This document shows, in pieces, positions 12,001 to 51,229 of a DNA stretch of 64,000 nt. Under the pieces are notes generated by a model. It saw nothing but the letters and a program-made list of their open reading frames with translations. It did not search any database and had not been told where the DNA came from. Source of the DNA: Methanobrevibacter sp. (GTDB lineage: Archaea > Methanobacteriota > Methanobacteria > Methanobacteriales > Methanobacteriaceae); contig NZ_SUTM01000003.1 in NCBI RefSeq assembly GCF_015062935.1, positions 62,001-126,000 on the forward strand. The letters run 5' to 3'. Positions within the stretch are counted from its first letter, which is position 1. Each line of letters opens with the position of its first letter. The translations under genes were made by a program, and so were the position numbers.

Positions 12001-12499
12001 CGGAACCTCACTTGCAAACAAAACAATCTACATCGGTTATAATGGAGTAATATTAAACAGAACAACTGATGCAAACGGTTATGCAAGTGTCCAGATTAAT
12101 CTGAAAAACGCAGGCCTCTACACATTTGTACTTGTATTCTTGGATGATGATAATTACAATGCATCTTTGGCTGTACAAAAAATAACCATTAACAAGAAAA
12201 CTACTTCAATAACTGCAAGTGCAAAAACATTTAAGGCAACTGCAAAAACCAAAAAATACACAGTGACTTTAAAAACCATCAAAGGAGCATCCATTGATGG
12301 AAAAACTTACTTGAAAGCAGGTAAAAAAGTCACATTGGTTATTAATGGAAGAATATACACTGCAAAAACCAATTCTAAAGGAAAAGCAACATTCAACATT
12401 AAATTGACCAAAAAAGGTATATTCACAGCTAAAATATCATTTGCTGGCGATGTAACCTACAAATCAACAACCAAAAAAGTAAAAATAACAATTAAATAG
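2..12499 (+). CDS. Giant adhesin-like protein (ALP), 5' end outside window
   Basis: The frame is open from base 2 with no stop, so at least 4165 residues are visible and the real start lies upstream; the GTG at 104 is only the first possible start in view. The protein is a secreted-type surface adhesin of the kind common in Methanobrevibacter. In order it shows Ig-like domains (to about 1170), a very acidic Asp/Glu/Tyr linker (about 1196-1300), right-handed beta-helix repeats with GGAIYN-like motifs (about 1270-3130 and 3720-4690) alternating with Ig-like segments, then a long Ig-like array (6269-11626). The end is a module with a DFTQYACEYY motif and a Lys/Thr-rich C-terminal domain ending in KVKITIK. 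NxT/NxS sequons are abundant. No C-terminal membrane anchor or LPXTG-like signal is seen. Function as host, protist or bacterial cell adhesin is inferred from the family. Confidence 0.9.
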   Translation, partial: GAVATSPKVIALIEECIFINNTGENRHVYSNGFTVAHDTVFEVSDVNLKASTVSYGNDSIIKGTADPGVNIYTLANLTVSGENVTAEIKNNAFTYNAGVLNHGKHTAVLNNIVDMNNNTYLMDSISITFKVNRIGIELNVSVDNITYGETLNIIETLPSTASGRISYQLNGKEYTKDELESLKLDAGKYSLVATYNNEDYAPSSSTINFEVYKANPTISVEDVEVEDNGTVIVNIKTNVPSIYTIEIGDYKTDKYVNGSRAVEIDKIFEPGTYTIKVTSQERVNYKSNSTEATLKVTKNIPVVTLSASNKVTSPNEAIVGVSAPENAVGNITYTITDSNKNIVKTLTQSCRDDLIVSDLDDGDYEINAIFEGDDLYYSTSNIKMAPLSIMRSASNVNILSEDEDDYDDEYYYPFIYQEDEDSDYEYYETLEEAIDAASLMGGIITVRGGTYYYEDGNAGIDIEGEAEITIRAFAGEEVIFDCQHESDFLYLTYDTEVEIIETAPPIPIIYTTEGPTITLENITVINGYANSDGGVIEMDAGTLTLLNCNFYNNEAEYGGVIYIGSVTSDQDADVIAVNTTFINNTARSEGGAIYISEGLEQFVSASFLGCTFLDNYQGEDDERTMNYFAGDAADEIVKKACIFNAKDTVTWSMDKINQTVTVIGTSTDVFDSIVLLYLDHIPLYSIYNNGSQTFNVTFEDVMGGNYTIGVMNDHDLNTYIFKDASFEMRVPNFIISADEVYENLTDAIGNVTDKGIIYANANYHIDENMEIDITKSFTLTNFRDRMVVFDGNSTNWFFTVAEGCNVVIENIEFVDGGIKDHASIENYGSLTLKNCTFTAFETESIIYNSGSLNIIDGVFSLNSINNAIVLNDGELFIDGAEFSSNVINTNSVVYNNGNAEIVASNFTENINNGNGGAIYNKNSLTIKDTVFNENEGINGGAVYNEGTLEVLNSTFEDNTANGYGGAIFNDGEANIANSSFSGSFSAKDGGAIYNNNMLIVNNSTLVANTATGNGGAIYNNKTLKLAESFFGINFAYELANIYNAGDVQEFERNTFDFYDVILYVPDGEYGIPTTITGTLDPQFNMDLQLTLPGFVNYKDANVTITDGIFEYNTGVLPKGAYDVILNEVIYDKNGNVYYGESIRDRLIVNKANVYINLTVDDLILKNSDIGTPVLKINASKNGTFQLLFNNRLSTFTIADSQAEITLDSVGEGNYSVMVVREGDENYNDAANGTTFTVSEYLGNFIVNSTGAKFDTLNLAIQFSRNEDIIYVMEGNYSGPANVGLTISGKKLSIIPIGVVVFDGSYTNSGFLTIDENSDITLEDIVISGFKDRVLHNKGNLTVDECTFANNTLDLTGIIYSENPSGNLKIVESGFYDNKVCQIIYSRSNIIINETIFENNTPFLVSGDLIEIFSSSVKVISTEFVENTFKGAGIFLNRCTDVHINAEFYNNTLEQAIFSYSHYGLNIENSTFTGNTFDHAIYSENSQNTQNIKGSTFTDNTVRNVVYSDDDKLYVIGSTFSANTLSGNGTLYLITKDVTIDDCLFAENKADNYRNIYSSYNPKISNTVFDAINVDYNVSDIDYGHTAKINGTIDIGTNFDFNVNININNNVISVYAVDNKFACSLRDLTGGDYDVVLNAQNRDSNTFVFNQITKTFTVNRIDPGLKVTISNITQGEKLEVNATLINNATDKILYQLDGKWYNKTQLENLTLTHGNYLVAASYGGNKNYYPVGIPIYVEVDKITPKITVSDVEVDYGEDIKIDVSADIADYYTVFIDNGYNESVSLYVDNNAIFTFSSANFKPGRYEIKVYKFETDDYNEAFAYANLTVNKAKGFFNLSKDLITEGENATINVTVPVNAYGNITYKVYDSNMNVVYNITQSCLENLVVPDLAAGQYIVTGTYEGDDYYTANSIVNSSFIFVRGIVDVNITVSNTTYGEDVTVTINSKVDGDYLVYVGTEKMVVTVINGTGNVSVSNLTVGSYAANVTIVDGKYSAFNETVFNVTPKSVSVIVSVEDIFYDEDAVVFVYGEVDGEYIVRVYDQNYTVNVVDGTGNITLYDLGLDKDILVSVTIVNGNYTAYNTTTFNVNKFSTPIELDVATGENNVTMTVTVNDAATGLVKFQVTGPEEYTLYVDVIDGKAVLEDILETGDYTVIATYMGDYRLNTNITYEDFTIRGHIKKDTPISASAEVVGYRVTVTVNVDENATGFVRLAVGGTVANIEVVDGVAKLTTNLLPNSYFVDVTYLGDDDFNMNSTSVSFTVTEISKENTTIDLNIIAGEDTALIIVDLNKSATGLVKFYMVGKETGEEYTMYMDVIDGHVETFTNSIEPGNYTVVATYMGDSVFNTNTTSKDVEILGHIMKDTPIDVTVETNANRVTLTVKVDENATGFVEVKSGLSVSNIALENGESTLTITLPYGSYTLDVTYLGDDNYNKNSTKAEFTLVEPAKENTPISLDVVTDENNVEMTINVDEAATGLVKFQVTGPEEYTLYADVVNGKAVLEDILETGDYRVIATYMGDSRFNTNITSEEFTIAGHIKKDTPISASADVTGNRVKLTVKVDENATGFVKLTVGGTVTNIEVDNGIATLTTTLVPGSYYVDVTYLGDDDYNMNKTSVTFTIVEASKKNTPINLDIDVYEDAALVMVDVDKSATGLVKFYMVGKETGEEYTMYMDIIDGHVETFTNSIEPGNYTVVATYIGDSVFNTNTTSKDVEILGHVMKDTPIDVEVETNANRVTLTVKVNENATGFVEVKSGLSVSNIALENGESTLTITLPYGSYTLDVTYLGDDNYNKNSTKAEFTLVEPAKENTPISLDVVTEENSAVMTVNVDEAATGLVKFQVTGEKEYTLYVDVIEGQAVLEDILDTGDYTVVATYMGDSRFNTNITSEEFTIVGHIKKDTPITASAVVNGNRVTLTVNVDENATGFVKVTVGSTVTNIEVVDGTATLTTVLVPNSYFVDVTYLGDDNYNMNKTSVTFTITDIAKKNTHIDLNIDVYEDAALVMVDINESATGLVKFYMVGKETGEEYTMYMDVIDGHVETFTNSIEPGNYTVVATYMGDSVFNTNTTSKDVEILGHLMKDTPIDVAVETNANRVTLTVKVNENATGFVEVKSGVSVSNIALENGESTLTITLPYGSYTLDVTYLGDDNYNKNSTKAEFTLVEPAKENTPISLDVVSEENNVVMTVTVNEAATGLIKFQVTGEEEYTLYADVVNGEAVLEDILETGDYTVIATYMGDSRFNTNITSQEFTIAGHIKKDTPITASAVVNGNRVTLTVNVDENATGFVKLTVGGTVTNIEVQDGVATLTTVLVPNSYFVDVTYLGDDNYNMNKTSVTFTITDVAKKNTNIDLNIDVYEDTALVMVDLNKAATGLVKFYMVGKETGEEYTMYMDIIDGHVETFTNSIEPGNYTVVATYMGDSVFNTNTTSKDVEILGHLMKDTPIDVEVETNENRVTLTVKVNENATGFVEVKSGVSVSNIALENGEATLTITLPYGSYALDVTYLGDANYNKNSTKAEFTLVEPAKENTTISLDIDTVENNVTMTVTVDDTATGLVKFQITGPEEYTLYADVINGKAVLEYVLLTGDYTVVATYMGDDWYNTNITSEDFTIVGHIKKDTPISARADVSGNRVTLTVNVDQNATGFVKLTVGGTVTNIEVQDGVAKLTTVLVPNSYFVDVTYLGDNNYNMNRTSVTFTITDITKQNTDIDLNIDVYEDTALVMVDINESATGLVKLYMVGKETGEEYTMYMDIIDGHVETFTNSIEPGNYTVVATYMGDSVFNTNTTSKDVEILGHVKKDTPITADVVVDGNNVMITVTVNENATGFVKFTTSGSDIFAEVKDGKAIVTTVLPAGNYTVVAAYLGDEDFNGNETVISFSVAEGEETVVNITVPKDLKEGDNATVKVEIPGATGNVTVIVDGKETVIELVNGSAEVPISNVSGGEHDVVVIYSGDDKHASAYQASTFNVAKKPEKRGTEILAKDFTQYACEYYEGERGRNFTFQLVDLNGTSLANKTIYIGYNGVILNRTTDANGYASVQINLKNAGLYTFVLVFLDDDNYNASLAVQKITINKKTTSITASAKTFKATAKTKKYTVTLKTIKGASIDGKTYLKAGKKVTLVINGRIYTAKTNSKGKATFNIKLTKKGIFTAKISFAGDVTYKSTTKKVKITIK
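6269..11377 (+). repeat. 1074-bp in-frame tandem array of four-Ig-domain modules
   Basis: Within the giant ALP a 358-residue module of four Ig-like domains repeats with an exact period of 1074 bp. Units begin at 6269, 7343, 8417, 9491 and 10565. In the first unit the domains start at 6269, 6539, 6800 and 7082 (90, 87, 94 and 87 residues). The fifth unit has the first three domains; its fourth (11378-11626) is a diverged version. The third domain carries the KETGEEYTMYMD motif and is almost unchanged at DNA level between copies. No insertion or deletion separates the copies, which suggests recent amplification or ongoing gene conversion. Confidence 0.95.
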
Positions 12500-12760: not shown

Positions 12761-15700
12761 ATGAAGGTTAAAAAAACAATAATCTTGCTGACGCTTGTCG
12801 TTTTTCTCGTAAGCCTTGCAAATGTATATGCAGGTGAAATGGATGATGCACTGGCAAGTGAAGATGCAAGTCAAATCGAGGTGTCCTCAACAGTCGAGGA
12901 TAACCTCCAGGCAAGCGAAGAAAATGCTATAGTGGAACAAACAGGTAATCACTATGCAGATAAACTTTCAAGCTCAGGGGAATTTGATGAGCTTCAAAAA
13001 TTAATTGATAATGCTTCAGACAATGGCATAATCAATCTTGAGCATAATTACACCTACGCAGTAGGTACAGACACTATAACTGAGGGAATAAGTATAAGCA
13101 AGAACTTAACAATCAACGGTAACGGATTTGCAATAGACGCACAGGGCAAATCAAGGATCTTCAATATTGACGGCGGCACAAATGTGCTTTTAAACAATAT
13201 CATATTCACAAACGGATTCACTGAGGGCAACGGTGGAGCAATACTTGCATACGGTAACGTGAATATTGCCAGGTCCAGTTTCATCAACAACACTGCCGTT
13301 GACGGTGGAGCAGTTGAGAGTTTCAACGCTAAAATGACTATTTCAGAGTCATACTTCACCTCCAACAATGCAACAGAGTATGGTGGGGCAATCTATAACT
13401 TCAATAGTGACGTTGAGCTGAGTGATTTATATTTTGAAGACAACTATGCAACACAGTACGGTGGAGCAATATATAATTTCCGTGGAAATGTCAATGTTAC
13501 ACAATCACAGTTCACCCGCAATGCTGCCGGCAGTAAGGGCGGTGCAGTCTTAAATTCCTTTGGCAGTGTAAACATTGCTGATGCAAACTTCAGCGAAAAC
13601 ACTGCAGCTGAAGGTGGTGCAGTTTACTTCGCTAGTGCGGATAATGTGACAAATTGTAATTTTATTAATAACACTGCAGGTAAATCCGGCGGAGCAGTAT
13701 ATGTTGATGAGGTTTACAATGCTTCTAAAATCGACTCAACATTCATTGACAACCATGCAAATAACGGTGGAGCAATATACTTCAACGGAGGAATAAGCAA
13801 TGTCACAATCGGCGGAATTTATATAGGCAATGTTGCTCAAAGAGGCGGAGGTGCGATATTTGTGCGTGGAAAATCCATGAACAACAATTTCACTGCTGAT
13901 TTTATAGCTAATGAAGCAAGAGCTGCCAGCGGAGGAGCAATATTCATTTATAATCAGGCTGACAACAACACATTTGAAGGCAGTTACTGGGACAATTACG
14001 CTATCTACGGTGGAGCAATCTTTTTCTACAACAAGGCAAACAGTAATGTGTTTAACAGCGAATTTACAAATAACACTGCTAAATCCTGCGGTGGTGCAAT
14101 CTTTTTCTACAACACTACTGATGGAAATAACTTTACAGGTGATTTTACTGCTAACAATGCTTTAGGTGAGGTTGATGAGAGTGTTGGAAACGGTGGTGCA
14201 ATAACATTTAAGGACACTTCATCCAACAGCATATTCACATGTGACTTTATAAACAACACTGCTAATTTGAACGGCGGGGGCGTAAACTATCGCCAAACTC
14301 CATACAACATTACATTCAACAGCAATTTCATAAACAACACTTCCCCTAGAGGCGGAGGAGTTAATTTCTTCGAAACATTTGAAAATGTAATATTCAATGG
14401 TGATTTCATTGGAAACTCCGCAGTCAAAGGTGGTGCAATCGCTGCTGTTGACGGTATTATTGACTGTGTTATATTCAGCGATAACCGTGCTGAAGAAGGT
14501 GGTGCAGTTTACATTAACGGTACCGGTCAAGTGTCAGACTGTATTTTCACCAACAATACTGCAACTGATGAGTATAGTGGTGGAGGTGCCGTCTACATCG
14601 GTTCAGGTAAGGTGACTAACAGCATTTTCATATCCAACAGGGCAACCAGTGCCGGCAGTCTTGGAGGCGCAGTATTAATTAAAAATTCAGCTAATGTGAC
14701 TGGCTGCAGCTTTGAAGATAACTTCGCAGGCTTTGGCGGAGCTGTCGCAGATGAATTTAATGTTAATGTGAATAATTGTGATTTCACAGCTAACCGAGCA
14801 TCAGTTGAGGGCGGTGCTCTCTATATGGGTTCAGGTAATATTGTAAATTCCAATTTCGCCAACAACAATGCAAGTGATGAGGATAGTGAAGGTGACGGTG
14901 GTGCTGTTTACGTTGACCGCAATGTTACTGTGGTAAATTGTAATTTCACAGGCAATAAAGCTTATAGGGGTTCTGCAATTTACTTCTGGGTTATTGGGGA
15001 TTTCAAATACGTCAGGTCCATTTCCCATTCTACTTTCCTGAACAATAGGGCAAGTATTGATTCTTTATCTCCATTTACTTTAACAGTCAATGAAAATAAT
15101 ATTGAAATCGCTTTTGAGGGTTACGACAACCTTTTAAATGCAATACTGTCCAGAAAGATGAGTGATGTCAACATCACAAACGTTACCTACTGGGGAGCTA
15201 ATGGTGTTGAAAACACAGGGGATGCCACCATTGTGCCTGCCATGTTATATACTGAAGCAGGTCAGAACGTCACAGTTTCAGGTCTTGTTAACTGTGAGCC
15301 TCTAAATCTCAGTGCAGTTACAAATGGGGAAGGCAAAATTGTTTTAAATATTAGCGCAGAGGATAATTATTTCCTCACTGTTCGCCACGACGCAGATTCA
15401 TACTACTCTGAAGGTGAAAAAACATTCACAAACATAGCTTTCAATGTGAATGTTGTCTCTCAGACAACCTCAAACAGGACTGTTAACCTTACTGCAGAAT
15501 CCAATATTTTAAGTGAAGTCATGCCTGGTAACTTGGTATTTATATTGCCGAACGGCACTCAGATTAATGCGACTTACGGCGGTAACGGTACCTGGTGGGC
15601 AATGCATACATTCGATGAATGTGCGGTTTACAAAGTCAATGCAAGCTATGTCGGACTGGACAATGTAGCTGTTAGGAATGCGACTGTTACTGTTTTAAAA

Positions 15701-16555
15701 GCACTTTCTAAATTTTCAGATGTTGTCGTAATGGGTGGTAATGTTACACTGACTTTGTGTGATGAGAACGGAAATCCGATTTCAGGCACAAATATTACAT
15801 ATGCTATAGACGGCGTTTCAAATGCTACTGTCAGTGACGATAACGGATCATTTGTTATTGTTGCAGCTTCCGGAGCTGAAATATTTGTCGATTATGCAGG
15901 CAGTGATGATTATGTCGGGTCTAATATTACAATTAAATTGACTACTCCTCAAAGACAGTCTACAGTTATTGTAGGAGAAGACTTTACACAGTACGCCTGT
16001 GACTATTATGTCGGTGAGAGAGGTAAAAACTTCACAGTACAGCTTACAGATGTGGATGGTAATCCTCTATCAAATAAAACAGTTTATATCGGCTATAACG
16101 GCGTGACCTTAAACAGAACAACCGATGCAAACGGTTTTGCAAATGTTCAGATTAACCTCAAAAACGCAGGTCTTTACACATTTGTTGTTGTATTTTTAGA
16201 TGATAATGACTACAACGCATCCATGAAAGTATTTAAAGTAACTATCAACAAGAAACCTACTTCAATTTCTGCAAGTGCAAAGACTTTCAAGGTCAGTGCA
16301 AAAACCAAAAAATACACAGTTACTTTAAAAACCATTAAAGGAGCATCCATTGATGGTAAAACATACCTTGCATCAGGTAAAAAAGTAACTTTAAAAGTCA
16401 ACGGCAAAACCTATACTGCAAAAACAAATGCCAAAGGTCAGGCAACATTCAGCATTAAAATAACCAAAAAAGGCAAATTCACAGCAGTAATCAAGTATGC
16501 TGGTGACAATACATACAAATCAGCATCCAAAAAAGTTAAAATAACAATCAAATAG
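12761..16555 (+). CDS. Secreted adhesin-like protein with beta-helix repeats
   Basis: This 1264-residue protein starts with a clear signal peptide (Lys-rich start, hydrophobic core about residues 7-20, likely cleavage after the VYA near residue 24). Residues about 75-750 are Pmp-like right-handed beta-helix repeats built on GGAIYN/GGAVY and FxxNxA motifs. Ig-like domains follow, then the DFTQYACDYY module and the Lys/Thr-rich C-terminal domain ending KVKITIK, both shared closely with the giant ALP upstream. It is exported through Sec and probably held at the pseudomurein surface, but no transmembrane anchor is visible. It has its own promoter and terminator, so it need not be co-transcribed with its neighbour. 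Its ligand is unknown. Confidence 0.92.
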   Translation: MKVKKTIILLTLVVFLVSLANVYAGEMDDALASEDASQIEVSSTVEDNLQASEENAIVEQTGNHYADKLSSSGEFDELQKLIDNASDNGIINLEHNYTYAVGTDTITEGISISKNLTINGNGFAIDAQGKSRIFNIDGGTNVLLNNIIFTNGFTEGNGGAILAYGNVNIARSSFINNTAVDGGAVESFNAKMTISESYFTSNNATEYGGAIYNFNSDVELSDLYFEDNYATQYGGAIYNFRGNVNVTQSQFTRNAAGSKGGAVLNSFGSVNIADANFSENTAAEGGAVYFASADNVTNCNFINNTAGKSGGAVYVDEVYNASKIDSTFIDNHANNGGAIYFNGGISNVTIGGIYIGNVAQRGGGAIFVRGKSMNNNFTADFIANEARAASGGAIFIYNQADNNTFEGSYWDNYAIYGGAIFFYNKANSNVFNSEFTNNTAKSCGGAIFFYNTTDGNNFTGDFTANNALGEVDESVGNGGAITFKDTSSNSIFTCDFINNTANLNGGGVNYRQTPYNITFNSNFINNTSPRGGGVNFFETFENVIFNGDFIGNSAVKGGAIAAVDGIIDCVIFSDNRAEEGGAVYINGTGQVSDCIFTNNTATDEYSGGGAVYIGSGKVTNSIFISNRATSAGSLGGAVLIKNSANVTGCSFEDNFAGFGGAVADEFNVNVNNCDFTANRASVEGGALYMGSGNIVNSNFANNNASDEDSEGDGGAVYVDRNVTVVNCNFTGNKAYRGSAIYFWVIGDFKYVRSISHSTFLNNRASIDSLSPFTLTVNENNIEIAFEGYDNLLNAILSRKMSDVNITNVTYWGANGVENTGDATIVPAMLYTEAGQNVTVSGLVNCEPLNLSAVTNGEGKIVLNISAEDNYFLTVRHDADSYYSEGEKTFTNIAFNVNVVSQTTSNRTVNLTAESNILSEVMPGNLVFILPNGTQINATYGGNGTWWAMHTFDECAVYKVNASYVGLDNVAVRNATVTVLKALSKFSDVVVMGGNVTLTLCDENGNPISGTNITYAIDGVSNATVSDDNGSFVIVAASGAEIFVDYAGSDDYVGSNITIKLTTPQRQSTVIVGEDFTQYACDYYVGERGKNFTVQLTDVDGNPLSNKTVYIGYNGVTLNRTTDANGFANVQINLKNAGLYTFVVVFLDDNDYNASMKVFKVTINKKPTSISASAKTFKVSAKTKKYTVTLKTIKGASIDGKTYLASGKKVTLKVNGKTYTAKTNAKGQATFSIKITKKGKFTAVIKYAGDNTYKSASKKVKITIK

Positions 16556-40285: not shown

Positions 40286-41663
40286 ATTTTTTACTCCCTT
40301 CTTCAAGCCCCTTCATAATCTTATCGACTGTAGTTAGCCTGTCATATGCTATAAGCGGTCCCATATGGAGAATTATATCTCCAGGTTCGGAATATTTGAA
40401 GGTTTCACATGCTGCGATTTCAATGTTTTCCACAGCCACCTTTTCAATTTTTGGATTGGTTATTGCATCTAAAATCTCCTGAGCAGCTTCCATTTCTACT
40501 TCCTGTGTAACTTCGTTAAATCCACTAGCAATAACTGTCTTAATGTCATATCCACTTACTAACTGACCAACTTCAGCCTTGTCTCTAACGGACAATGTAT
40601 CAAAATGATCTAAGAATAACACTACACTTTCATCCTTGAAATAATCCAAGGTGATTTTCATTCCATCATACAAGAATGCAGAATCAAGAATTACTTTTCT
40701 GCCATTGTAATCGCCGACATCTTCCATGTGTGCAGGCAGTCCTTTAAATACGGTTAAGGCATCAATAATATCTTCCTTAGCAACTCCGTATGTCAGGGCA
40801 ACAGCTGATGCCGCAACAGAATTTTCAAAGAAGTAGCTCATCATATTGAACGGAGTTGTGAATTCCACATCTTTTGATTTGATTGTTAATGATTTATCTC
40901 CAACTGTTCCCTTGAAGTCAACATCCTCATCAAGAGCATAGAAAATTGCATCATCCCTAACGCTTTCGATAATGTCACGACAGGAATTATTGGCTATGAA
41001 TGTTTCACTCATTGCCTGTAAAACCAATTTACGTTGCTGGTATTTTTCAAGGGAGCCTCCAAATTCAGACAGGTGGTCTTCTGCTATGTTGGTTAAAAGA
41101 CCAATTTTAATATCCAGCCTGTCCAAAAGGCCTATAGTACCATGAGGAAGTTCAAAAATAGCTATATCACAGTCCTGTGCTTTACCTTTAACAATTCCAT
41201 CGATAATAGCTTCTGAAACCAAGTTGTTTACTAAAGATGAACATGACCATACCTTATAACCAGCCTGCTTGAAGAGGCTTGTAGTTATGAATGTAGTGGT
41301 TGTTTTACCCATGGTTCCGGTAATTCCGATAATGTCTACCGGAATCAAATCATTAACAGTTTTTGAGAATTCTTCATTGGTTAAAACTTTTAATTCTGAA
41401 TTTTTTACTTTTTGAGCTATTGGAGCTGATTCAGGTAATGTCGGAGGCATGTAAACCGCATCGAAGCCATCAACAGAAGGGTCTTTATTTGCTAAATCCA
41501 GAGTAACTCCTTCTTTTTCCATTTCAATTAAACTTCTTTGAAATTCTATTTTAAATTCTGAAATGTCTTTTAAATCAGTTATAACAACTTGATGGCCCAA
41601 ATAATTTAGCAATCTTGCAACAGGCCTACTTGCATTTCCAGCACCAACAACTAAATAATTCAT
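40278..41663 (-). CDS. Mur ligase family protein, probable pseudomurein synthesis
   Basis: The 461-residue ligase has an N-terminal Rossmann-like domain (VVGAGNASRPVARLL), the P-loop GITGTMGKTT (113-122, with Met where Asn is usual), LTNIAEDHLSEFGG and a C-terminal ligase domain (VILDSAFLYDGMKITLDYF). It is diverged from bacterial MurC-F and from its downstream neighbour; together they probably add amino acids to the pseudomurein peptide. The start has AGGAAGA just upstream. The order in which the two enzymes act cannot be read from sequence. Confidence 0.83.
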   Translation of the reverse strand: MNYLVVGAGNASRPVARLLNYLGHQVVITDLKDISEFKIEFQRSLIEMEKEGVTLDLANKDPSVDGFDAVYMPPTLPESAPIAQKVKNSELKVLTNEEFSKTVNDLIPVDIIGITGTMGKTTTTFITTSLFKQAGYKVWSCSSLVNNLVSEAIIDGIVKGKAQDCDIAIFELPHGTIGLLDRLDIKIGLLTNIAEDHLSEFGGSLEKYQQRKLVLQAMSETFIANNSCRDIIESVRDDAIFYALDEDVDFKGTVGDKSLTIKSKDVEFTTPFNMMSYFFENSVAASAVALTYGVAKEDIIDALTVFKGLPAHMEDVGDYNGRKVILDSAFLYDGMKITLDYFKDESVVLFLDHFDTLSVRDKAEVGQLVSGYDIKTVIASGFNEVTQEVEMEAAQEILDAITNPKIEKVAVENIEIAACETFKYSEPGDIILHMGPLIAYDRLTTVDKIMKGLEEGSKKYE

Positions 41664-41785
41664 AAAAAGTCTTCCTCACAATTTATTAGTTTAATTTATA
41701 GTTTTTATTTAATTTAAAGTTTTAATTAAAAAAAATTTTATTCGAATTTGTCAGTTAAATTTAAAAAAAAAGAATATTAAAAACC

Positions 41786-42973
41786 TTATTCGAATTGAAT
41801 AAGATTTTCTACATCATTATAAACAACATCAAGTCCACACATTGATGGAACATAATTTGCTGCTTTTGCAGAGTTTACACCAATTACCTCAAAGCCCATC
41901 TCTTCAATAGGTGCCACAACCATACAGGTGTCACATACAACATTTCCACCTGCGGATTCGATTATTTCTGTGTAACCCATTCTGTCAGCAGTTGCCTTTA
42001 CGCTAACTGATGTGCAAATCCACAATTTGTTTTTTATTGTTTTACCTTGTACGATACCAGCTACTTGTTTAATTTCTTCAAGTGATGCATGAGGACATCC
42101 TAAACAAATAAGGTCAGGTTCTTTATCTGTTGTTGTTAATTTCTGGCGGGTTTCTTGGATTTCCTTGTCTGAAATGAACATTATATCTTCAATTTCACCA
42201 CTGTCAATTAAATTGGCTTCAGGAGTAACATCCTCCACGTGGTAAAGTGCAACAGATCCTGATGAAGCAAGAGCCGCACCAAGGGTTTTCAAATCGTTGT
42301 TGTTTGGAGTGTTTTGAAGTTTGAAGTAAGGCACTCCTCCACCGACAAATTTACCGATAATGTAGCCTAACGCTCCAAAATCAGCGCCTTTCAATTCAGT
42401 TGTTACATTAACAACAAGATTTGCCTGCCTATTTTCCTCTAAATGAAAACCATATAATGGAGTTTTACCTACAATAGCTGCTGCAAGAGCTGCAGGGCCT
42501 CCCTCACGGTTTGTTCTAGCACCAATTACAGAATTAACATAAGCAACGGCTGAAGATTCTGACCAGGAAACATGGTCCCTGAATCTTGGAACATTACCTA
42601 CCAGATATGGTGTACAGGTACATGTTTTAGATATTCCGAGATTTGCATATGCATCTACAATCTGATTTTGCTTAATTGCAAAGTCCTTTGGAAACCCTAA
42701 TTTTTCCCAGTTGTCCAAATCTGTTCCAGGAGGATTGAGTGAAGCATTAATAGTAGCTTTTCCAGACCCATCAAGAGCCAAATCTTCAAGATACTCTAAA
42801 CCGGCATCCCCAATAGTTTTGTAAGAAACTCCAGAAACCTGTGCAGAAGTAATGTCAACCAATTTGGAAGCTCCATAGATATCTCCTAAAGCAACAAGAA
42901 TATCCATGCTTTTCCTAATAGTTTCACCGAACTCTCCATCACACATTTGCTGTTCTTCGTTTGTTAAAAACAT
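41786..42973 (-). CDS. Aconitase X, phosphomevalonate dehydratase large subunit
   Basis: The 395-residue protein matches the aconitase-X (former DUF521) family: [21 protein letters not shown] start, [62 protein letters not shown] and CDTCMVV with iron-sulfur-type cysteines. In the archaeal mevalonate pathway this subunit dehydrates 5-phosphomevalonate toward isoprenoid lipids, with a small DUF126 subunit that is not in this window. ATG 42973 is preferred (GGTGAT just upstream, one base after the preceding stop); ATG 42985 would overlap that gene. Confidence 0.9.
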
Positions 42974-42974
42974 G

Positions 42975-44309
42975 TTAATCACCATTTAATTGATATTCAA
43001 CCATTTCATCAACAATATGCAGGAAGTTATCCTTGCTTTCATATGGTATCATAGCACCGGCAGCAATATCGTGACCGCCTCCAGTACCCCCAAAATTATT
43101 TGAAGAATCTTTTAAGGCCTTTCCTAAATTAACGCCTTTTGCAACCATATCCCTTGTGGTTCTGCCTGAAATTTTAATATCCTTATGAAGACGTGACATT
43201 CCAATAACCGGTTTGGAATCATCCAATATCTCAACTGACAATCCAATACTTGCAATAGTTCCCATTACAGATTTCAATACCTTGTCTTCACTATACAAAT
43301 ACTGAATTGAATTTAACTGTTGAGCACCTTCCTTTTTAATCCATTCAAGACCTTTGACAATCTGGTCACGGTATTGGCGTTGCAGTCTTAAGGCGGCATC
43401 CAAAGCCTGGTCTTTTTCACCTAAAGCAATACTTAAACCCAAGCCCTGTTTTTTATTTTTACCGCAAGCATCGAGAATATAAGAGAATTCTTCCAAATCA
43501 CGTAACATAGGCACCTGTTTTGCAACAGTGTAACAGTCACCGAAAATATCAGGATTAATAGTAATCAGCGCATCTTTTAGCAAATCTTTTTCTTCATCTT
43601 CCAAATCTGTGAATTTAATTCCGTAAGATAAATTCATCTTCTCTAAAAATTCACGGGCACCGTCAAAGTCACCGCTTATTCCAGGAAGAGGAGGTGAAAA
43701 AGTATAAGCTAAAGATTTAAAAATCGGTTCAGTTGATTTGGAAACAATCTTTAAGCCTTCATGAATTTCCAGATTACCACTTTCAAGGGCATCATCAAGG
43801 ATTAGTTTATTAACACCAGTGAATCCGCCTTGTCCTTGCATATCACCAAATGCTCCAACCAGAGCATAATAAGCCAAATGTTTTTTATCCAAATCACGAA
43901 TGGCCAAATAAGCTGAGCCCGCACCACATAAATCTTTACTACCGTCAACACCGAAAAGGTGAGGGTTGATGTGGACGACATTGCTCTCACTTTCAGTATC
44001 GTCTACCTGATGGTGATCTGCAACGATGACATCATGTTTATAAGTGTTAAATTCCTTTATAAATGGACTTCCCATATCTGAGAAGATAAATAAATCATAC
44101 TTTTCACTTCTAAGCTGATTTACCATATCTTCTTTTAGACGTGGGACAATTGTAGTATGGAATTGAATATTTTCCTCAGCCAAAGCATTAGCTATAACAG
44201 CGGCTGCGGAAATTCCATCAGCATCGTTATGAGAAATTAATCTTATAACTGAATCATTTTCCATATGCTCCTTGAGCATACGTGTAGCTTCACTAGCTCT
44301 ATTTAACAA
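42975..44309 (-). CDS. DHH-family phosphoesterase / RecJ-like nuclease
   Basis: The protein has the DHH signatures [20 protein letters not shown] and VADHHQVD and a C-terminal DHHA1-type [16 protein letters not shown]. It is the archaeal RecJ-like exonuclease group that works with the replisome (GINS-associated nuclease), acting on single-stranded DNA or short RNA. The start is uncertain: the frame is open to GTG 44363, but that would overlap rpsO by 65 bases. TTG 44309 (444 residues) or ATG 44279 fit better. It lies at the rpsO 3' end, the usual archaeal context for this gene. Confidence 0.87.
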
Positions 44310-44697
44310 GGAGTGCTGCTTCTCTTGGATTATATCTCCAACCTTCTGGTAATCTACCTTCACTTACATAGTAAGAAGCTAATCTTCTGATTCTTGATTC
44401 GATGATAGTTAAACCTCTTTTTGAGTGTAAGTCTTTAGGGTTTTCTTCTAAGTGATCTCTGATGTTTACTGCTCTTTTGATTAAGTTTAATAAGTCTTCT
44501 GGGTATTCTCCAGCTTGACCGTTTCTTCTTAAGATTTCAGTAATTCTTTCACCAGTTACATCTTTAACAGATGGAATTCCGTATTGGTCTCTTAATACAA
44601 TACCGATTTCGGAAGTACTTTTACCTTCTCTGTTAAATTTTAAAATCATTTCTTCAATTTCTTCATCACTATAAGTTACCCATTCTGGTCTTGCCAT
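44299..44697 (-). CDS. rpsO: 30S ribosomal protein S15
   Basis: This is the 132-residue archaeal form of S15 with an extended N-terminus ([18 protein letters not shown]) and the RNA-binding core ([29 protein letters not shown]). It binds 16S rRNA at the platform. GAGGTTT lies upstream of the ATG. It overlaps the start of the RecJ-like gene and follows the XTP pyrophosphatase gene by about 50 bases. Confidence 0.98.
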
Positions 44698-44750
44698 AAT
44701 ATAAACCTCTTTAAATTTTTTAAATCTTAAATAAGCCCAATTAAGTTAAA

Positions 44751-45302
44751 CTATTCTCTAGAAGAATACCATTTTATGAATTTTTCTAAAGAATTTTTTC
44801 TATGTGAAAATTGGTTTTTTTCATCAGTTGTCAGTTCCCCAAAGGTCTTACCTTCACTAGGAACATAGAAAATCGGATCAAAAGCAAATCCTAAATCTCC
44901 CCTTTCTTCAACTGCGATTTCACCTGACACCTTGCCTAAAAAAGTCTTGGGCTCAGAATTGGGGGCACAGTACCCAATAACTGACCTGAATTCGGCATAA
45001 CGGTCATTTGAATCTGCTAATAACTTTAAAATTCCCTGATTTCCAATAGTATCCTGAACATAATGAGAATACACTCCAGGAAATCCATTCAAAGCTTTAA
45101 TGAATAAACCAGCATCTTCAACAATCACAGGACAGTCAAGTTCATGACAAGCATATTTTGCGCCTGATATGGCCACTTCCTCAAGAGTTCCCTGAGGTTC
45201 TGTGTAACCTAAATCAATATGCTTCAAGTTAATGTCATAATCTTTGAAAATGTTCTCTGCTTCTTTAACTTTATGTTCGTTACCAGTTATAAATGTTATC
45301 AT
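44751..45302 (-). CDS. XTP/dITP pyrophosphatase, RdgB/HAM1 family
   Basis: The 183-residue enzyme removes non-canonical purine triphosphates (ITP, dITP, XTP) from the nucleotide pool. The motifs [50 protein letters not shown] and [14 protein letters not shown] are complete. Little untranslated leader is apparent: TATAATAAAA lies about 30 bases before the ATG, so the mRNA may be nearly leaderless. It heads the rpsO-recJ group. Confidence 0.95.
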
Positions 45303-45470
45303 ATCTTTTAAATATGAAATTAATTTTTATTATAGATGTTGGTAAAAAGTATGAAATGAAAAAAATTTCAGTACTTCTTATCCTTAATTAATTTTTATCT
45401 CAACCAACAATTAAATTAGGGTTACTAAACTGAAATGAGATAATAATTGAAAGCAAAATCGATTTAAAAT

Positions 45471-45509
45471 AACCCAAATTTTCATTAATATAACCCAAAA
45501 TTATGGGTT
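45471..45509. repeat. AACCCA direct and inverted repeats
   Basis: AACCCAAA occurs at 45471 and again at 45492, 21 bases apart (two helical turns), and TGGGTT at 45504-45509 is the inverse, giving a six-bp hairpin with the second copy. It lies between the XTP pyrophosphatase promoter region and the end of the DUF4062 gene, so it may be an operator or a terminator. Confidence 0.45.
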
Positions 45510-45532
45510 GATATGAGTCATTGAATAATTAA

Positions 45533-46954
45533 TTACTTAATACCAACATCAGAAATTATTTTAAAAATATTTATTCTTCCATTTTTAGATTTTATTACAA
45601 AATTCTCTTCTTCTAATTTATTTAAATCTCGTATTGCAGTGTTTCTAGATACATTAAACATTTTTTGATACTGTGAAATAGTAATTTGGGATTTTTCACT
45701 TCTTAAAAATTTAATTTGCCTATCATTTAAACCATTTGAATAATTAAGGATATAATTACTTTTAAATACTACTTTAAAAAAATCATTATTTTCAAAAAAA
45801 TCAGGTTCATCCAAACCATGATTTTTCATCAAATCTCTCATTTGCTTAATTCCCCTACCCACATGCTCCATATATATTGTATTAGAAAAAATATTACAAA
45901 TATTGGCGTTTCTATGAATTGGTTCATTTTCTTCAAAATTATAAATATTTAATGGATATTTTAAACGTCCTGGACTTTTTACTTCAATTCTATCTGGATA
46001 AATATAAAAATTAACTGATGCTGAAGATATAGTATAATCTCTATGTGCTAAAGCATTCACTAACGCTTCACGTATAGCATTGAATGGATATTCATGAGAA
46101 GTATATCTATGAAAACCTTTTACTTCTGAAATATGGCGAGTATGTTTAAAGAAAAATTCTTCGCATTCCTTCAATACTTTAATTAATGAAGTGTTTGAAA
46201 CATTTTTTTCAAATTTTTTAAATCCACTATCATCAAAAAAATGAACCATTTTTACTTCATGAGGAATATTAAATTTAGATAAATCTTTAGCAAAAAATAA
46301 TGCCCCTGCAACATTCAATTTAAACTCGCCATTATAATATTCACCTGCATTAATTGTTGATAATGCATTAACTAGTCCTTTTTCATCTCTTAAATTTTTA
46401 ATAGGACTATAGTCCACACTATTAAAAAACATTTCAACAGCTTCCATATCGACATCATCACATGAAGAGTCAAGTAACAATTCAGAATCATAAGCCCTAT
46501 AATTAATCAAATTCTTTTCTAAAAAATCACATAAACTTCTTCTAACTTCAAAATATAATTCATATTTGTCTTTGAAAGTTTGATAGCTATGTTCATCTTT
46601 TATTTTTTCAATGAAAGTATTGACATTATCTTCCCTGAATTTAACATCTTTAAGGAATATTAACACGTCATTGTGAGCCTTATTGAAGAGATTATATTCG
46701 TATTCTGTTGCAGATATTCCAGATTCCGAAATATTCCCATAATCAGAACCAATCAAACCTATATACACATCTGAATTAACCACCTCATGAGAATATAGTT
46801 CAACAGGAGTTTTACCTGAAGCAGATGTTTCTTCAAATGAAAATACCTCAAAAAACCTATTTAGTACATAATCCTGTTCGATTTCGCGTTTAACAAACTC
46901 ACGTTCGTTTTCAAATTCCTGTTGGTTACTGCTTAAGAAAATTTTAAATTTCAT
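45533..46954 (-). CDS. DUF4062 - GHKL ATPase - winged-helix fusion protein
   Basis: The 473-residue protein has three parts. Residues 1-105 match DUF4062 (KIFLSSNQQEFENERE, VYIGLIGSDYG, SATEYEYN). Residues about 190-400 match the RecG-like/Schlafen-associated ATPase region, with a GHKL N-box EALVNALAHRDY (296-307), SPGRLKYP and HVGRGIKQM. Residues about 405-465 form a winged helix (FNVSRNTAIRDLNKLEE). The usual AlbA/Schlafen N-terminal domain is absent and DUF4062 takes its place. It stands alone, is AT-richer than its neighbours and has AAAGGTT as ribosome site. DUF4062 and related GHKL proteins occur in defence-type or regulatory contexts, so a role in phage or stress response is possible but unproven. 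Confidence 0.82.
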   Translation of the reverse strand: MKFKIFLSSNQQEFENEREFVKREIEQDYVLNRFFEVFSFEETSASGKTPVELYSHEVVNSDVYIGLIGSDYGNISESGISATEYEYNLFNKAHNDVLIFLKDVKFREDNVNTFIEKIKDEHSYQTFKDKYELYFEVRRSLCDFLEKNLINYRAYDSELLLDSSCDDVDMEAVEMFFNSVDYSPIKNLRDEKGLVNALSTINAGEYYNGEFKLNVAGALFFAKDLSKFNIPHEVKMVHFFDDSGFKKFEKNVSNTSLIKVLKECEEFFFKHTRHISEVKGFHRYTSHEYPFNAIREALVNALAHRDYTISSASVNFYIYPDRIEVKSPGRLKYPLNIYNFEENEPIHRNANICNIFSNTIYMEHVGRGIKQMRDLMKNHGLDEPDFFENNDFFKVVFKSNYILNYSNGLNDRQIKFLRSEKSQITISQYQKMFNVSRNTAIRDLNKLEEENFVIKSKNGRINIFKIISDVGIK

Positions 46955-47118
46955 GATAAAACCTTTAAAGCTAAATTAATTGATAATAATTAGTTTAATT
47001 TAATATTTAAAGGTTTTTAAATTGTTATTTTAATTAAAAATTGATTTTAAATCGTTTTATTGTAGTCACTTAGAAAAATTGTCCTCAAATTGTAAAATTG
47101 ATTTCATTTAGAAGACAA

Positions 47119-48717
<1,599 letters not shown>

Positions 48718-48796
48718 CTAAAAAATTTAATTAACTATATATTAATATTTAAAAATATAAAAATATTTTTTTAATTCAAAAAACAAAAGTGAAAAC

Positions 48797-49300
48797 ATGG
48801 GATTTTATAGTGCTAATACTCTTGAGCAGAAAAGAGTGAAACAATTAACTGGAGACATTAACATTCATGATATGTTTAAAAACGAATGTAATGCAAGAGG
48901 AATACCTATTTACAATGCATACAACATTCAAAAAAGACTGATTCATGAAGTTGAACAAGAAGAACTTGTAGGAGTCGACAATGTCGATGCAAGATTAATG
49001 GAACTATTGGAAGAAAGGGGAAAAAACAAGGTCACACACAGATATGTGGATTTTGTATCTAGAGAAGACAGCGCCTCCAAAGGAGTAGTTCCTGCAATGC
49101 CAGAACAAGAAGAGAAGCTTCCTCCAAAAGAACAAATTAAAATTCCGCCTAGGGCAAGAGACGGGAAAACATTTAAAACAGATGATGAACTTCCTGAAAT
49201 GGAAATGTTAAAGAAAATCATGCTCCAGAATAAAAAGATTATTAATCAGAACAAGATTATTATAGATTTATTGAAAAAACAGGGTGAAAACAATGATTGA
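48797..49300 (+). CDS. Uncharacterised protein with C-terminal coiled coil
   Basis: I do not recognise this 167-residue protein. The first 70 residues look globular (NIHDMFKNECNARGIPIYN). A Pro/Lys/Glu-rich linker follows (about 100-130), then a Lys/Ile/Asn-rich helix (KKIMLQNKKIINQNKIIIDLLKKQ) likely to form a coiled coil. No membrane or export signal is seen. It overlaps the start of cobT by eight bases, so the two are probably translated together, but a link to cobamide synthesis is only suggested by that. Confidence 0.75.
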   Translation: MGFYSANTLEQKRVKQLTGDINIHDMFKNECNARGIPIYNAYNIQKRLIHEVEQEELVGVDNVDARLMELLEERGKNKVTHRYVDFVSREDSASKGVVPAMPEQEEKLPPKEQIKIPPRARDGKTFKTDDELPEMEMLKKIMLQNKKIINQNKIIIDLLKKQGENND

Positions 49301-50360
49301 AGGAATTAAAACTTACGGATCAAGTGAATTAACTGAAAAATTACAGGAATGTGATGATCCAGTATTTTTACTTACAATTGGAACAACTGAAACCTCATTA
49401 ATCGATGGAATTTCAGGTGCTGGACCTTCAGCTGATTTAACAGAATATACTCCCGCTTCAGATGTTGAATTTATGGTATTGGGCGAAGTCAGATGTTGTG
49501 AAGCCCCTGCCGAAACTGTTGTGGGCGATGCGGCTGCACCTACACCTGCAAGACTTACAAAAGCAGCACTTCAACTTTCAAATATCCCATTCGTTATTGT
49601 TGATGCAGGTTCTAAAATCAAACCTGATGTGGAATATGTAAACCTTGGAAAGGAATACGGAAGAGACATAAGAACCGGAAAAGGTGTTTTGAATCCTTTA
49701 GAAATATTTGAAAACGCTAAAGATTTAGGTGCTGAATTATCAAGAAGACATGAAATGCTTCTCATAGGTGAAAGCATAGCTGCAGGAACTACAACTGCAT
49801 TGGGAGTCTTAAGGGCACTTGGATATGATGCTAATGAAAAAGTAAGCGGAAGCATGCCGCATAATCCTCATGACATGAAAACAGAAGTTGTAAATGAAGG
49901 ACTGAAAAATGCCGGCCTTGACCCTGAAACAGACGATATTGATGCAATGCAGGCAATCGGTGCAGTGGGAGATCCTACACTTCCTGCAATAGCCGGAATA
50001 GTTCTGGGCTCTGACATTCCTATTATTCTGGCAGGCGGAACTCAAATGGCTGCCGCATGTGCTATCATCAAATCCATCCAGCCTAGCTTTGACTTTTCAA
50101 GAATTAACCTAGCCACTACAGTCTTTGTTGCAGGCGATGAAACTGCAGATTTATTCGGAATATTAAAACAGATTGATGATAACATTACCGTTAATGTTGT
50201 AGACCCGAAATTCGAAGAGTCAGAACATGAAGGGTTAAGAAATTACCTAAAAGGATTTGTTAAAGAAGGTGCAGGTGCCGGAGGTGCAATGTACAGTGCA
50301 CTTGCTTTAGGAAATTCTCAGGAAAAACTTAGAAAGAAAATAGAAAAAGTTTGCAGATAG
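49293..50360 (+). CDS. cobT: Nicotinate-nucleotide-dimethylbenzimidazole phosphoribosyltransferase-like
   Basis: The 355-residue protein matches the archaeal CobT-like family that makes the alpha-ribotide of the lower cobamide ligand. Motifs seen are LTIGTTETSLIDGISGAGPSADLT, EAPAETVVGDAAAPTPARLTKAAL, LLIGESIAAGTTTALGVL and VLGSDIPIILAGGTQMAAACAI. In methanogens the base may be 5-hydroxybenzimidazole or another. ATG 49293 is preferred over GTG 49284 because GGTGA lies six bases before it. A terminator follows directly. Confidence 0.88.
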   Translation: MIEGIKTYGSSELTEKLQECDDPVFLLTIGTTETSLIDGISGAGPSADLTEYTPASDVEFMVLGEVRCCEAPAETVVGDAAAPTPARLTKAALQLSNIPFVIVDAGSKIKPDVEYVNLGKEYGRDIRTGKGVLNPLEIFENAKDLGAELSRRHEMLLIGESIAAGTTTALGVLRALGYDANEKVSGSMPHNPHDMKTEVVNEGLKNAGLDPETDDIDAMQAIGAVGDPTLPAIAGIVLGSDIPIILAGGTQMAAACAIIKSIQPSFDFSRINLATTVFVAGDETADLFGILKQIDDNITVNVVDPKFEESEHEGLRNYLKGFVKEGAGAGGAMYSALALGNSQEKLRKKIEKVCR

Positions 50361-50384
50361 AGATTTTTATCTCTACTTTTTTTT
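50358..50384 (+). terminator. Terminator after cobT
   Basis: TAGAGAT (50358-50364, overlapping the stop codon) pairs with ATCTCTA (50369-50375), followed by eight T residues. Confidence 0.8.
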
Positions 50385-50444
50385 AATTTACAACCCACCA
50401 CAACTTTACAATTTTGAACATTACCAACATAATGCAAAGAATTA

Positions 50445-51229
50445 TTGTACAATACCATTGAAATTTTTCAATTAGATTATTACTTTGACAATGAAACAAA
50501 AGAAATCTATAAATTAAATGAAAGCATTAATCTTCCGTTAGAAGTTACAGTCTACACTGATTCACAAACTATTACACAAAAATTGGTTAACGATGTTGCA
50601 ACCTTTAACATTAAGCCTGGGGCCGGTGACGAGGTAGTTTATGCAAAAATCGACAATCAGATATTGAACCTGAATGTGCATTCAAATTATACCACTCTGA
50701 TTGTAAATGATTTTACAAAATATTATAAAACCAGCAAAAAATTATCTGTTAAATTAATAGACGGAAATAATAAAGGCATTGCTGATGAAAAGGTATCTAT
50801 CGTAATGGCAGGTAAAACCTATACTTCAACCACCAACAAAACGGAATAGCTACTTTTAGTATTAAGGATACTCCTAATACTTTCAATATAAAAGTTGTTT
50901 ACAAAGGAAATGAAAATTATACAGCGACTACAAAGACCATAAAAGTTAAAGTAGTTAAACCAACCATTAAAGCTTCAAAAACTACAATACGTAAAAAAGG
51001 AAAATTTGTTGTTACATTTAAGGATGCAAATAAAAAAGTAATAAAAAATGTTAGAGTTAAATTCAAAATCAACGGTAAAACATATTACAAAACAACAAAC
51101 AGCAAAGGACAGGCAAAACTTACTATTAACCTGAAAGCAAATAAAAAATATACCGTTAAAGTAGGTTTCAAGTAAACTAAAACTTATGGAACCACTACCT
51201 TAACTAAAAAAATTAAAGTAATTAAATAA
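50445..51229 (+). pseudogene. Decayed C-terminal remnant of an adhesin-like protein
   Basis: The region encodes an ALP-type C-terminus: an Ig-like segment, the NDFTKYYKTSKKLSVKL motif, then a Lys/Thr-rich domain with GKTYYKTTNSKGQAKLTINL. It is broken at least twice. At about 50838-50843 one A is missing (NKT then stop at 50849; with one more A it reads NKNGIATFSIKDT). At 51173 a TAA interrupts the last strand before TKTYGTTTLTKKIKVIK and the natural stop at 51227-51229. There is no signal peptide or clear start (only a TTG at 50445), so the 5' part has also been lost. An 11-bp-stem terminator still follows. Confidence 0.82.

What the first reader, a model, noticed from the sequence alone, without database searches (positions are those of the whole stretch)
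45533..46954. DUF4062 replaces the Schlafen/AlbA domain in a GHKL-ATPase-HTH protein
DUF4062 (1-105), a GHKL-type ATPase region with EALVNALAHRDY, and a winged helix are joined in one solitary, AT-rich gene between housekeeping operons. The normal AlbA_2 partner domain is missing. This is the best candidate here for an undescribed defence or stress-sensing system acting alone.
Basis: partly seen in the sequence, partly recalled or inferred. Interest (0 to 1): 0.6.

Follow-up and report, generated by a model that had tools for sequence, protein, structure and literature searches.

The report
NADase-type defence gene in a methanogen
A methane-producing gut archaeon carries a single gene that joins a predicted NAD-destroying killer domain to the sensor half normally found on another antiviral protein, so it is most likely a stand-alone virus-defence gene built by swapping the weapon on a known chassis.

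Summary
The 473-aa ORF at 45533-46954 (-) is DUF4062 + HATPase_c_4 (GHKL) + winged HTH, with no AlbA_2 domain. The genome is Methanobrevibacter-like. Profile comparison shows residues ~139/153-464 are homologous end to end to the C-terminal part of Schlafen-AlbA_2/GHKL/wHTH proteins, and only the N-terminus differs: a clean effector swap. DUF4062 was recently shown to be a TIR-like NADase used in the anti-phage system Swarozyc (PMC13174449), and our profile matches that solved structure (E=9e-10). The catalytic Glu column (E86) and the GHKL motifs are invariant in 34 full-length relatives. The family is accessory. Most relatives have an empty kae1-rdgB site of ~45 bp, while others carry pseudogenes or remnants. 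Elsewhere the family is horizontally transferred: 100% gene identity against 80% kae1 identity, inside islands with Avs2, Avs4, PifA, an AbiJ-type gene and a tyrosine recombinase. 'Solitary' holds for the gene's position, but the genome has two paralogues. 'Undescribed' is too strong: both modules are known from defence, and what appears new is their combination. Verdict: new variant of a known kind.

The parts
45533..46954 (-). whole gene: DUF4062 (TIR-like) - linker - GHKL ATPase - winged HTH protein, 473 aa
46541..46954 (-). residues 1-138: TIR-like effector region (Pfam DUF4062 at residues 4-88 = 46691-46945), in place of AlbA_2
   Evidence: Pfam E=1.4e-17; profile match to KpSwz (PDB 10wc) E=9.4e-10 over profile positions 2-146; model matches TIR and NDT-like folds
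46697..46699 (-). codon of E86, predicted catalytic glutamate (motif SATEYEY, residues 81-87)
   Evidence: invariant in 34 relatives; aligned to the column that reads A in the deposited KpSwz chain, the E97A mutant of PMC13174449
46019..46540 (-). residues 139-312: linker region plus GHKL N-box, shared with AlbA_2-GHKL-wHTH proteins
   Evidence: hhalign P 99.95-100% from residue 139 or 153 onward
46034..46069 (-). GHKL N-box EALVNALAHRDY, residues 296-307 (E296, N300, H304 invariant)
45764..46018 (-). HATPase_c_4, residues 313-397 (P328-G329, R348-N349, G368 invariant)
   Evidence: Pfam E=1.1e-19
45575..45715 (-). winged helix-turn-helix, residues 414-460, DeoR-like TAxRDLxxL recognition helix
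   Evidence: Pfam HTH_11 E=1.2e-7, HTH_DeoR 9e-5; fastest-changing domain
46999..47018 (-). AAAAACCTTTAAATATTAAA, promoter-like (archaeal TATA-type) element about 45-64 nt before the ATG, conserved in the two other copies at this site
   Evidence: upstream comparison; function inferred
45303..47118 (.). accessory insertion between kae1-bud32 and rdgB; empty site in relatives is about 45 bp

Best explanation
A single-gene, abortive-infection-type antiviral defence protein. The N-terminal DUF4062 domain is a TIR-like NAD+ hydrolase that is silent in uninfected cells. The C-terminal linker-GHKL-wHTH part is the sensor and switch inherited from the Schlafen (AlbA_2)-GHKL-wHTH defence architecture: it detects an infection cue (nucleic acid or a viral protein, unknown), binds ATP, changes shape or oligomerises, and so brings TIR-like domains together to destroy NAD+ and stop the infected cell before the virus is released. 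Shown here: domain content, the clean N-terminal swap, invariant active-site columns, purifying selection, mobility, defence-island company of relatives. Inferred: NADase activity (by homology to KpSwz and TEP1), ATP switch, trigger, cell shutdown.
For: DUF4062 is a demonstrated NADase and anti-phage effector requiring one Glu (PMC13174449). The family profile matches that protein's solved chain (E=9.4e-10). S81, E84, E86, Y72, G73, S8, R18 are invariant in 34 relatives, one on a Legionella plasmid. The AlphaFold model (pLDDT 84) matches the GHKL protein 3lmm, then TIR-STING and other TIR domains. The C-terminal part is homologous to AlbA_2-GHKL-wHTH proteins (P 99.95-100%), a class reported as Schlafen RNases linked to BREX in at least 1017 taxa (PMC12839542). 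Patchy: 50 of 152 genomes of the phylum match. Same-site empty, truncated and remnant states. Horizontal transfer: 6.1-kb block with the gene at 100% between genomes whose kae1 is 80% identical. Neighbours of relatives: PifA, Avs2, Avs4, AbiJ_NTD4 type, integrase; type I and IIG restriction, bSEFIR, TIR, candidate defence genes. No conserved partner gene.
Against: No biochemical or infection data. The window copy itself lies between housekeeping genes, with no defence gene beside it. The N-terminal fold is as close to nucleotide N-glycosidases (BcmB, DNPH1) as to TIR domains, so the substrate is not certain. The wHTH keeps a DeoR-like recognition helix and some relatives share a conserved upstream block, which would also fit a transcription regulator. 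The neighbour analysis had no matched control set.
Confidence: 0.62

Rival explanations
1. Same architecture and defence role, but the effector cleaves nucleotides (dNMP, CMP or another nucleoside phosphate) instead of NAD+, starving viral replication.
For: In the fold search the model's N-terminal domain matches the CMP N-glycosidase BcmB (TM 0.71-0.74 by target length) and DNPH1/RCL (0.57-0.62) as well as TIR domains (0.58-0.63). DUF4062 is described as distantly similar to both TIR and nucleoside 2-deoxyribosyltransferase domains.
Against: The two DUF4062 enzymes shown to be active (KpSwz, TEP1) cleave NAD(P)+; sequence similarity is to KpSwz.
Confidence: 0.15
2. A transcription regulator: the TIR/NDT-like domain senses a nucleotide or NAD state and the wHTH controls its own gene or others; not a killing system.
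For: DeoR-like recognition helix TAxRDLxxL. A block TTATTATCATTTCAAGTGTA is kept upstream in most of the related clade.
Against: Catalytic Glu invariant rather than drifting; no conserved target operon; patchy, decaying, transferred with defence genes; wHTH is the least conserved domain by dN.
Confidence: 0.13
3. A selfish stabilisation module of mobile elements (addiction-like) without a role against viruses.
For: Found beside plasmid partition genes in Legionella and beside tyrosine recombinases in six archaeal loci.
Against: No antitoxin partner; repeated clean loss at the kae1-rdgB site without trace of a partner; company of known anti-phage systems.
Confidence: 0.07
4. A housekeeping or core gene of the kae1-rdgB-rpsO operon.
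For: Same strand and position within a conserved gene row.
Against: kae1 is found in 64 of 67 genus genomes, but the gene is intact at this site in only 2 of 31 genomes read there; 19 have an empty site of about 45 bp.
Confidence: 0.01

Closest known systems
Swarozyc (KpSwz; DUF4062 TIR-like NADase, PDB 10wc, PMC13174449)
   Same: Same N-terminal effector domain with the catalytic Glu column conserved; single gene; relatives sit in defence islands.
   Different: KpSwz has a short stalk and a portal-binding HTH/winged auxiliary domain (326-residue chain); here a linker-GHKL-wHTH part that our profile does not match in KpSwz. Host is an archaeon.
Prokaryotic Schlafen proteins, SLFN_AlbA_2 - GHKL (HATPase_c_4) - wHTH (PMC12839542; structure of a relative 3lmm)
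   Same: Homologous from residue 139/153 to the end, including the GHKL N-box and wHTH.
   Different: AlbA_2 RNase domain absent; TIR-like domain in its place.
Avs2 (AVAST) with an N-terminal DUF4062, seen here beside one copy (L035:2619-6830)
   Same: Same type of N-terminal DUF4062 effector.
   Different: Avs2 uses a STAND ATPase and large sensor; none here.
pAgo-associated SIR2/PNTD proteins in PADLOC
   Same: PADLOC profiles match residues 160-436, i.e. the shared linker-GHKL part (E 5e-13 to 1e-8).
   Different: N-terminal effector is SIR2, or the module is part of an Argonaute system; no Argonaute gene is seen next to the window gene.

Membership tests
Swarozyc | DUF4062 TIR-like domain with catalytic Glu | tested here: met
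Swarozyc | C-terminal stalk and portal-binding HTH/winged auxiliary domain of the KpSwz type | tested here: not met
   profile matches KpSwz only at chain residues 5-156; C-terminus is GHKL-wHTH
Swarozyc | NAD+ hydrolysis triggered by a phage portal; abortive infection | not testable with these tools
   needs bench work
Prokaryotic Schlafen (AlbA_2-GHKL-wHTH) | SLFN_AlbA_2 (PF04326) nuclease domain | tested here: not met
   absent in the window protein and not among families found in the 34 relatives
Prokaryotic Schlafen (AlbA_2-GHKL-wHTH) | HATPase_c_4 followed by winged HTH, with the same linker | tested here: met
AVAST/Avs2 | STAND NTPase core | tested here: not met
   no STAND or AAA match in Pfam
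pAgo-linked SIR2/PNTD system | SIR2 domain and Argonaute partner | tested here: not met
   no SIR2 match; neighbouring ORFs are housekeeping genes by reading
Anti-phage defence gene in general | accessory, mobile, clustered with known defence genes | tested here: met
   for relatives, while the window copy has no defence neighbour
Anti-phage defence gene in general | protects against a virus | not testable with these tools
   no infection data

The most novel reading that the evidence does not exclude
The linker-GHKL-wHTH part is a general plug-in sensor of prokaryotic immunity that takes different N-terminal weapons (Schlafen RNase, SIR2, and here a TIR-like NADase), comparable to STAND ATPases with exchangeable effectors. 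The archaeal DUF4062 branch is then a distinct, single-gene NAD-depletion system of methanogens.
Probability: 0.4. Interest if true: 0.65.

Novelty: new variant of a known kind. Interest (0 to 1): 0.5.

Why it matters
If correct, it links two separately described antiviral families through a shared chassis, predicts that the poorly understood GHKL-wHTH half is the sensor, and gives a defined test: move the effector between the two. It would also add a single-gene, NAD-depletion-type defence to methanogens, an ecologically important group; the archaeal defence survey read here does not mention DUF4062 or TIR.

Tried and rejected
The genome-contig scan with the single sequence gave only two loci, both at the same site. 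The viral-contig scan with the alignment found only two partial GHKL relatives without the DUF4062 part, and phage records matched only the GHKL-wHTH part, so there is no sign that viruses carry the full architecture. Apparent 2830-3724 aa reading frames in G011 and G034 are artefacts of masked N runs. The AAC3-I match (5hmn) in the PDB search is treated as chance. PADLOC 'pAgo' hits were considered as membership of an Argonaute system and rejected: they match only the shared linker-GHKL part. Rfam found no RNA in 41000-51000. The Schlafen preprint cited in PMC12839542 (doi 10.1101/2025.07.24.666596) is not held, so its data were not read. No matched control was made for the share of defence genes among neighbours.

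Full report
WHAT IS THERE. Pfam assigns DUF4062 (residues 4-88, E=1.4e-17), HATPase_c_4 (313-397, E=1.1e-19) and a winged HTH (414-460, E=1.2e-7), and no AlbA_2. The gene has 27% GC in a 35% GC window and lies on the same strand between kae1-bud32 and rdgB-rpsO-recJ-like genes. The closest named records are uncultured Methanobrevibacter MAGs, so the host is a Methanobrevibacter-like methanogen. The same genome has two paralogues: C5 (61% identical, intact) and C29 (44%, with a TAA just before the HTH).

THE SWAP IS REAL. Of 34 full-length relatives aligned (33 from Methanobacteriaceae genomes, one from a Legionella anisa plasmid), all have DUF4062 and HATPase_c_4. Profile-profile comparison against AlbA_2-GHKL-wHTH proteins aligns residues 139-464 (P=99.95%) and, with AlbA_2 versions from the same archaeal family, residues 153-464 (P=100%, E=2e-45). 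The alignment starts just after the DUF4062 region on one side and just after AlbA_2 on the other. AlbA_2 was confirmed by Pfam in those three archaeal proteins and in three bacterial plasmid proteins. So the C-terminal two thirds is common property and only the N-terminal domain has been exchanged.

WHAT THE N-TERMINUS IS. DUF4062 was shown in 2026 to be a TIR-like NADase: KpSwz (Swarozyc) cleaves NAD+ when a phage portal protein binds it and protects E. coli by abortive infection, and human TEP1 does the same chemistry in the vault (PMC13174449). Our family profile finds the KpSwz chain at E=9.4e-10. The column of E86 in the motif SATEYEY reads A in the deposited KpSwz chain, which fits the E97A mutant used for that structure; this equivalence is inferred from the alignment. 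E86, E84, S81, Y72, G73, R18 and S8 are invariant in all 34 sequences. The AlphaFold model (mean pLDDT 84, pTM 0.56; the relative placing of domains is uncertain) is matched first by the AlbA_2-GHKL-HTH protein 3lmm, then by TIR-STING, TIR domains and nucleotide N-glycosidases.

SELECTION. Pairwise dN/dS is 0.05-0.13 across intact copies. The wHTH has the highest dN (for example 0.45 against 0.16 in the TIR part, window versus G082), though dS is saturated in several pairs. A faster C-terminus fits a recognition part but does not prove it.

ACCESSORY AND DECAYING AT THIS SITE. kae1 is present in 64 of 67 genus genomes. At the kae1-rdgB site 31 genomes could be read or partly read. Intact gene: 2 (this genome and G082 = RUG11987, which form a clade in the tree, support 92/82). 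Pseudogene with an internal stop and truncation at residue 283: 1 (G069 = RGIG4535). Empty, about 30-75 bp: 19. Clear 3'-end remnants: 2 (L055, L056). Only the upstream insertion flank left: 2 (L063, L080). Other genes: 3 (L059, L061, L070). Contig end: 2. Over the phylum 50 of 152 genomes match, many by fragments.

MOBILE, IN DEFENCE COMPANY. G003 and G015 share a 6.1-kb block at 99.3% containing the gene (100% identical), a KAP NTPase and a tyrosine recombinase, while their kae1 genes are only 80% identical. The C5 copy of this genome is 97% identical to the copy in G017 against 79% for kae1. In those islands the neighbours are PifA (E=6e-77), Avs2 carrying its own DUF4062 (E=6e-227), Avs4 (E=0), an AbiJ_NTD4 protein and a phage integrase. 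Across other loci, neighbours include type I and type IIG restriction genes, bSEFIR, TIR, nucleotidyltransferase and candidate defence genes, but also housekeeping genes. No single partner is conserved. This fits a one-gene system that travels with others.

MECHANISM. The best-supported reading is a sensor-switch-effector protein: wHTH and linker recognise an infection cue, GHKL binds ATP and switches or oligomerises, and the TIR-like domain depletes NAD+. Prokaryotic Schlafen proteins with the same chassis (described there as RNase, minimal histidine kinase, wHTH) are reported to be linked to BREX in at least 1017 taxa and to act as suicide RNases (PMC12839542). PADLOC profiles for SIR2-PNTD proteins match the same linker-GHKL part, and a pAgo survey lists SIR2 fused to Schlafen (PMC6299218). 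These suggest, without proving, that the chassis accepts several effectors. Activity, trigger and the role of ATP are inferences.

KNOWN OR NEW. It is neither a Swarozyc member in the strict sense (its auxiliary domain test is not met) nor a Schlafen protein (AlbA_2 not met). It works like both. No paper found in the library describes the combination, but the supplement of PMC13174449, which lists DUF4062 architectures, could not be read, so the architecture may already be tabulated there. Hence 'new variant of a known kind', with moderate interest.

Noticed in passing
L032:9752-11203 (own genome, contig C29): A second paralogue has a premature TAA at about residue 418, just before the wHTH, so this copy is probably broken or makes a protein without HTH.
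   Followed up: partly
upstream of L031, L033, L133, L135, L136, L034, L137, L138 copies (about 40-80 nt before ATG): A block TTATTATCATTTCAAGTGTA is nearly unchanged in most copies of the C5-type clade; possible operator or promoter part. The window copy has a different conserved block, AAAAACCTTTAAATATTAAA.
   Followed up: partly
L035:2619-6830: An Avs2-type protein with its own N-terminal DUF4062 lies two genes from a DUF4062-GHKL-wHTH gene: two predicted NADase effectors in one island.
   Followed up: partly
L185:980-2203: A GHKL protein whose N-terminal half keeps the tail of the TIR-like region but has no Pfam DUF4062 match and no visible SxTExE motif; perhaps an inactive-effector variant.
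   Followed up: no
kae1-rdgB gap in L059, L061, L070: The same intergenic gap holds other genes in other species (an antisense SpoIIM-like membrane protein, an adhesin-like protein), so the site tolerates varied insertions.
   Followed up: partly
L165:7989-9492 (Legionella hackeliae plasmid): The Legionella version is annotated as two overlapping genes, DUF4062 and ATP-binding protein; either a frameshift or a split form. The L. anisa copy is one piece, next to partition genes.
   Followed up: no
window 2-12499 and 12761-16555: Very large open frames starting with signal- or adhesin-like sequence, typical of Methanobrevibacter surface proteins.
   Followed up: no
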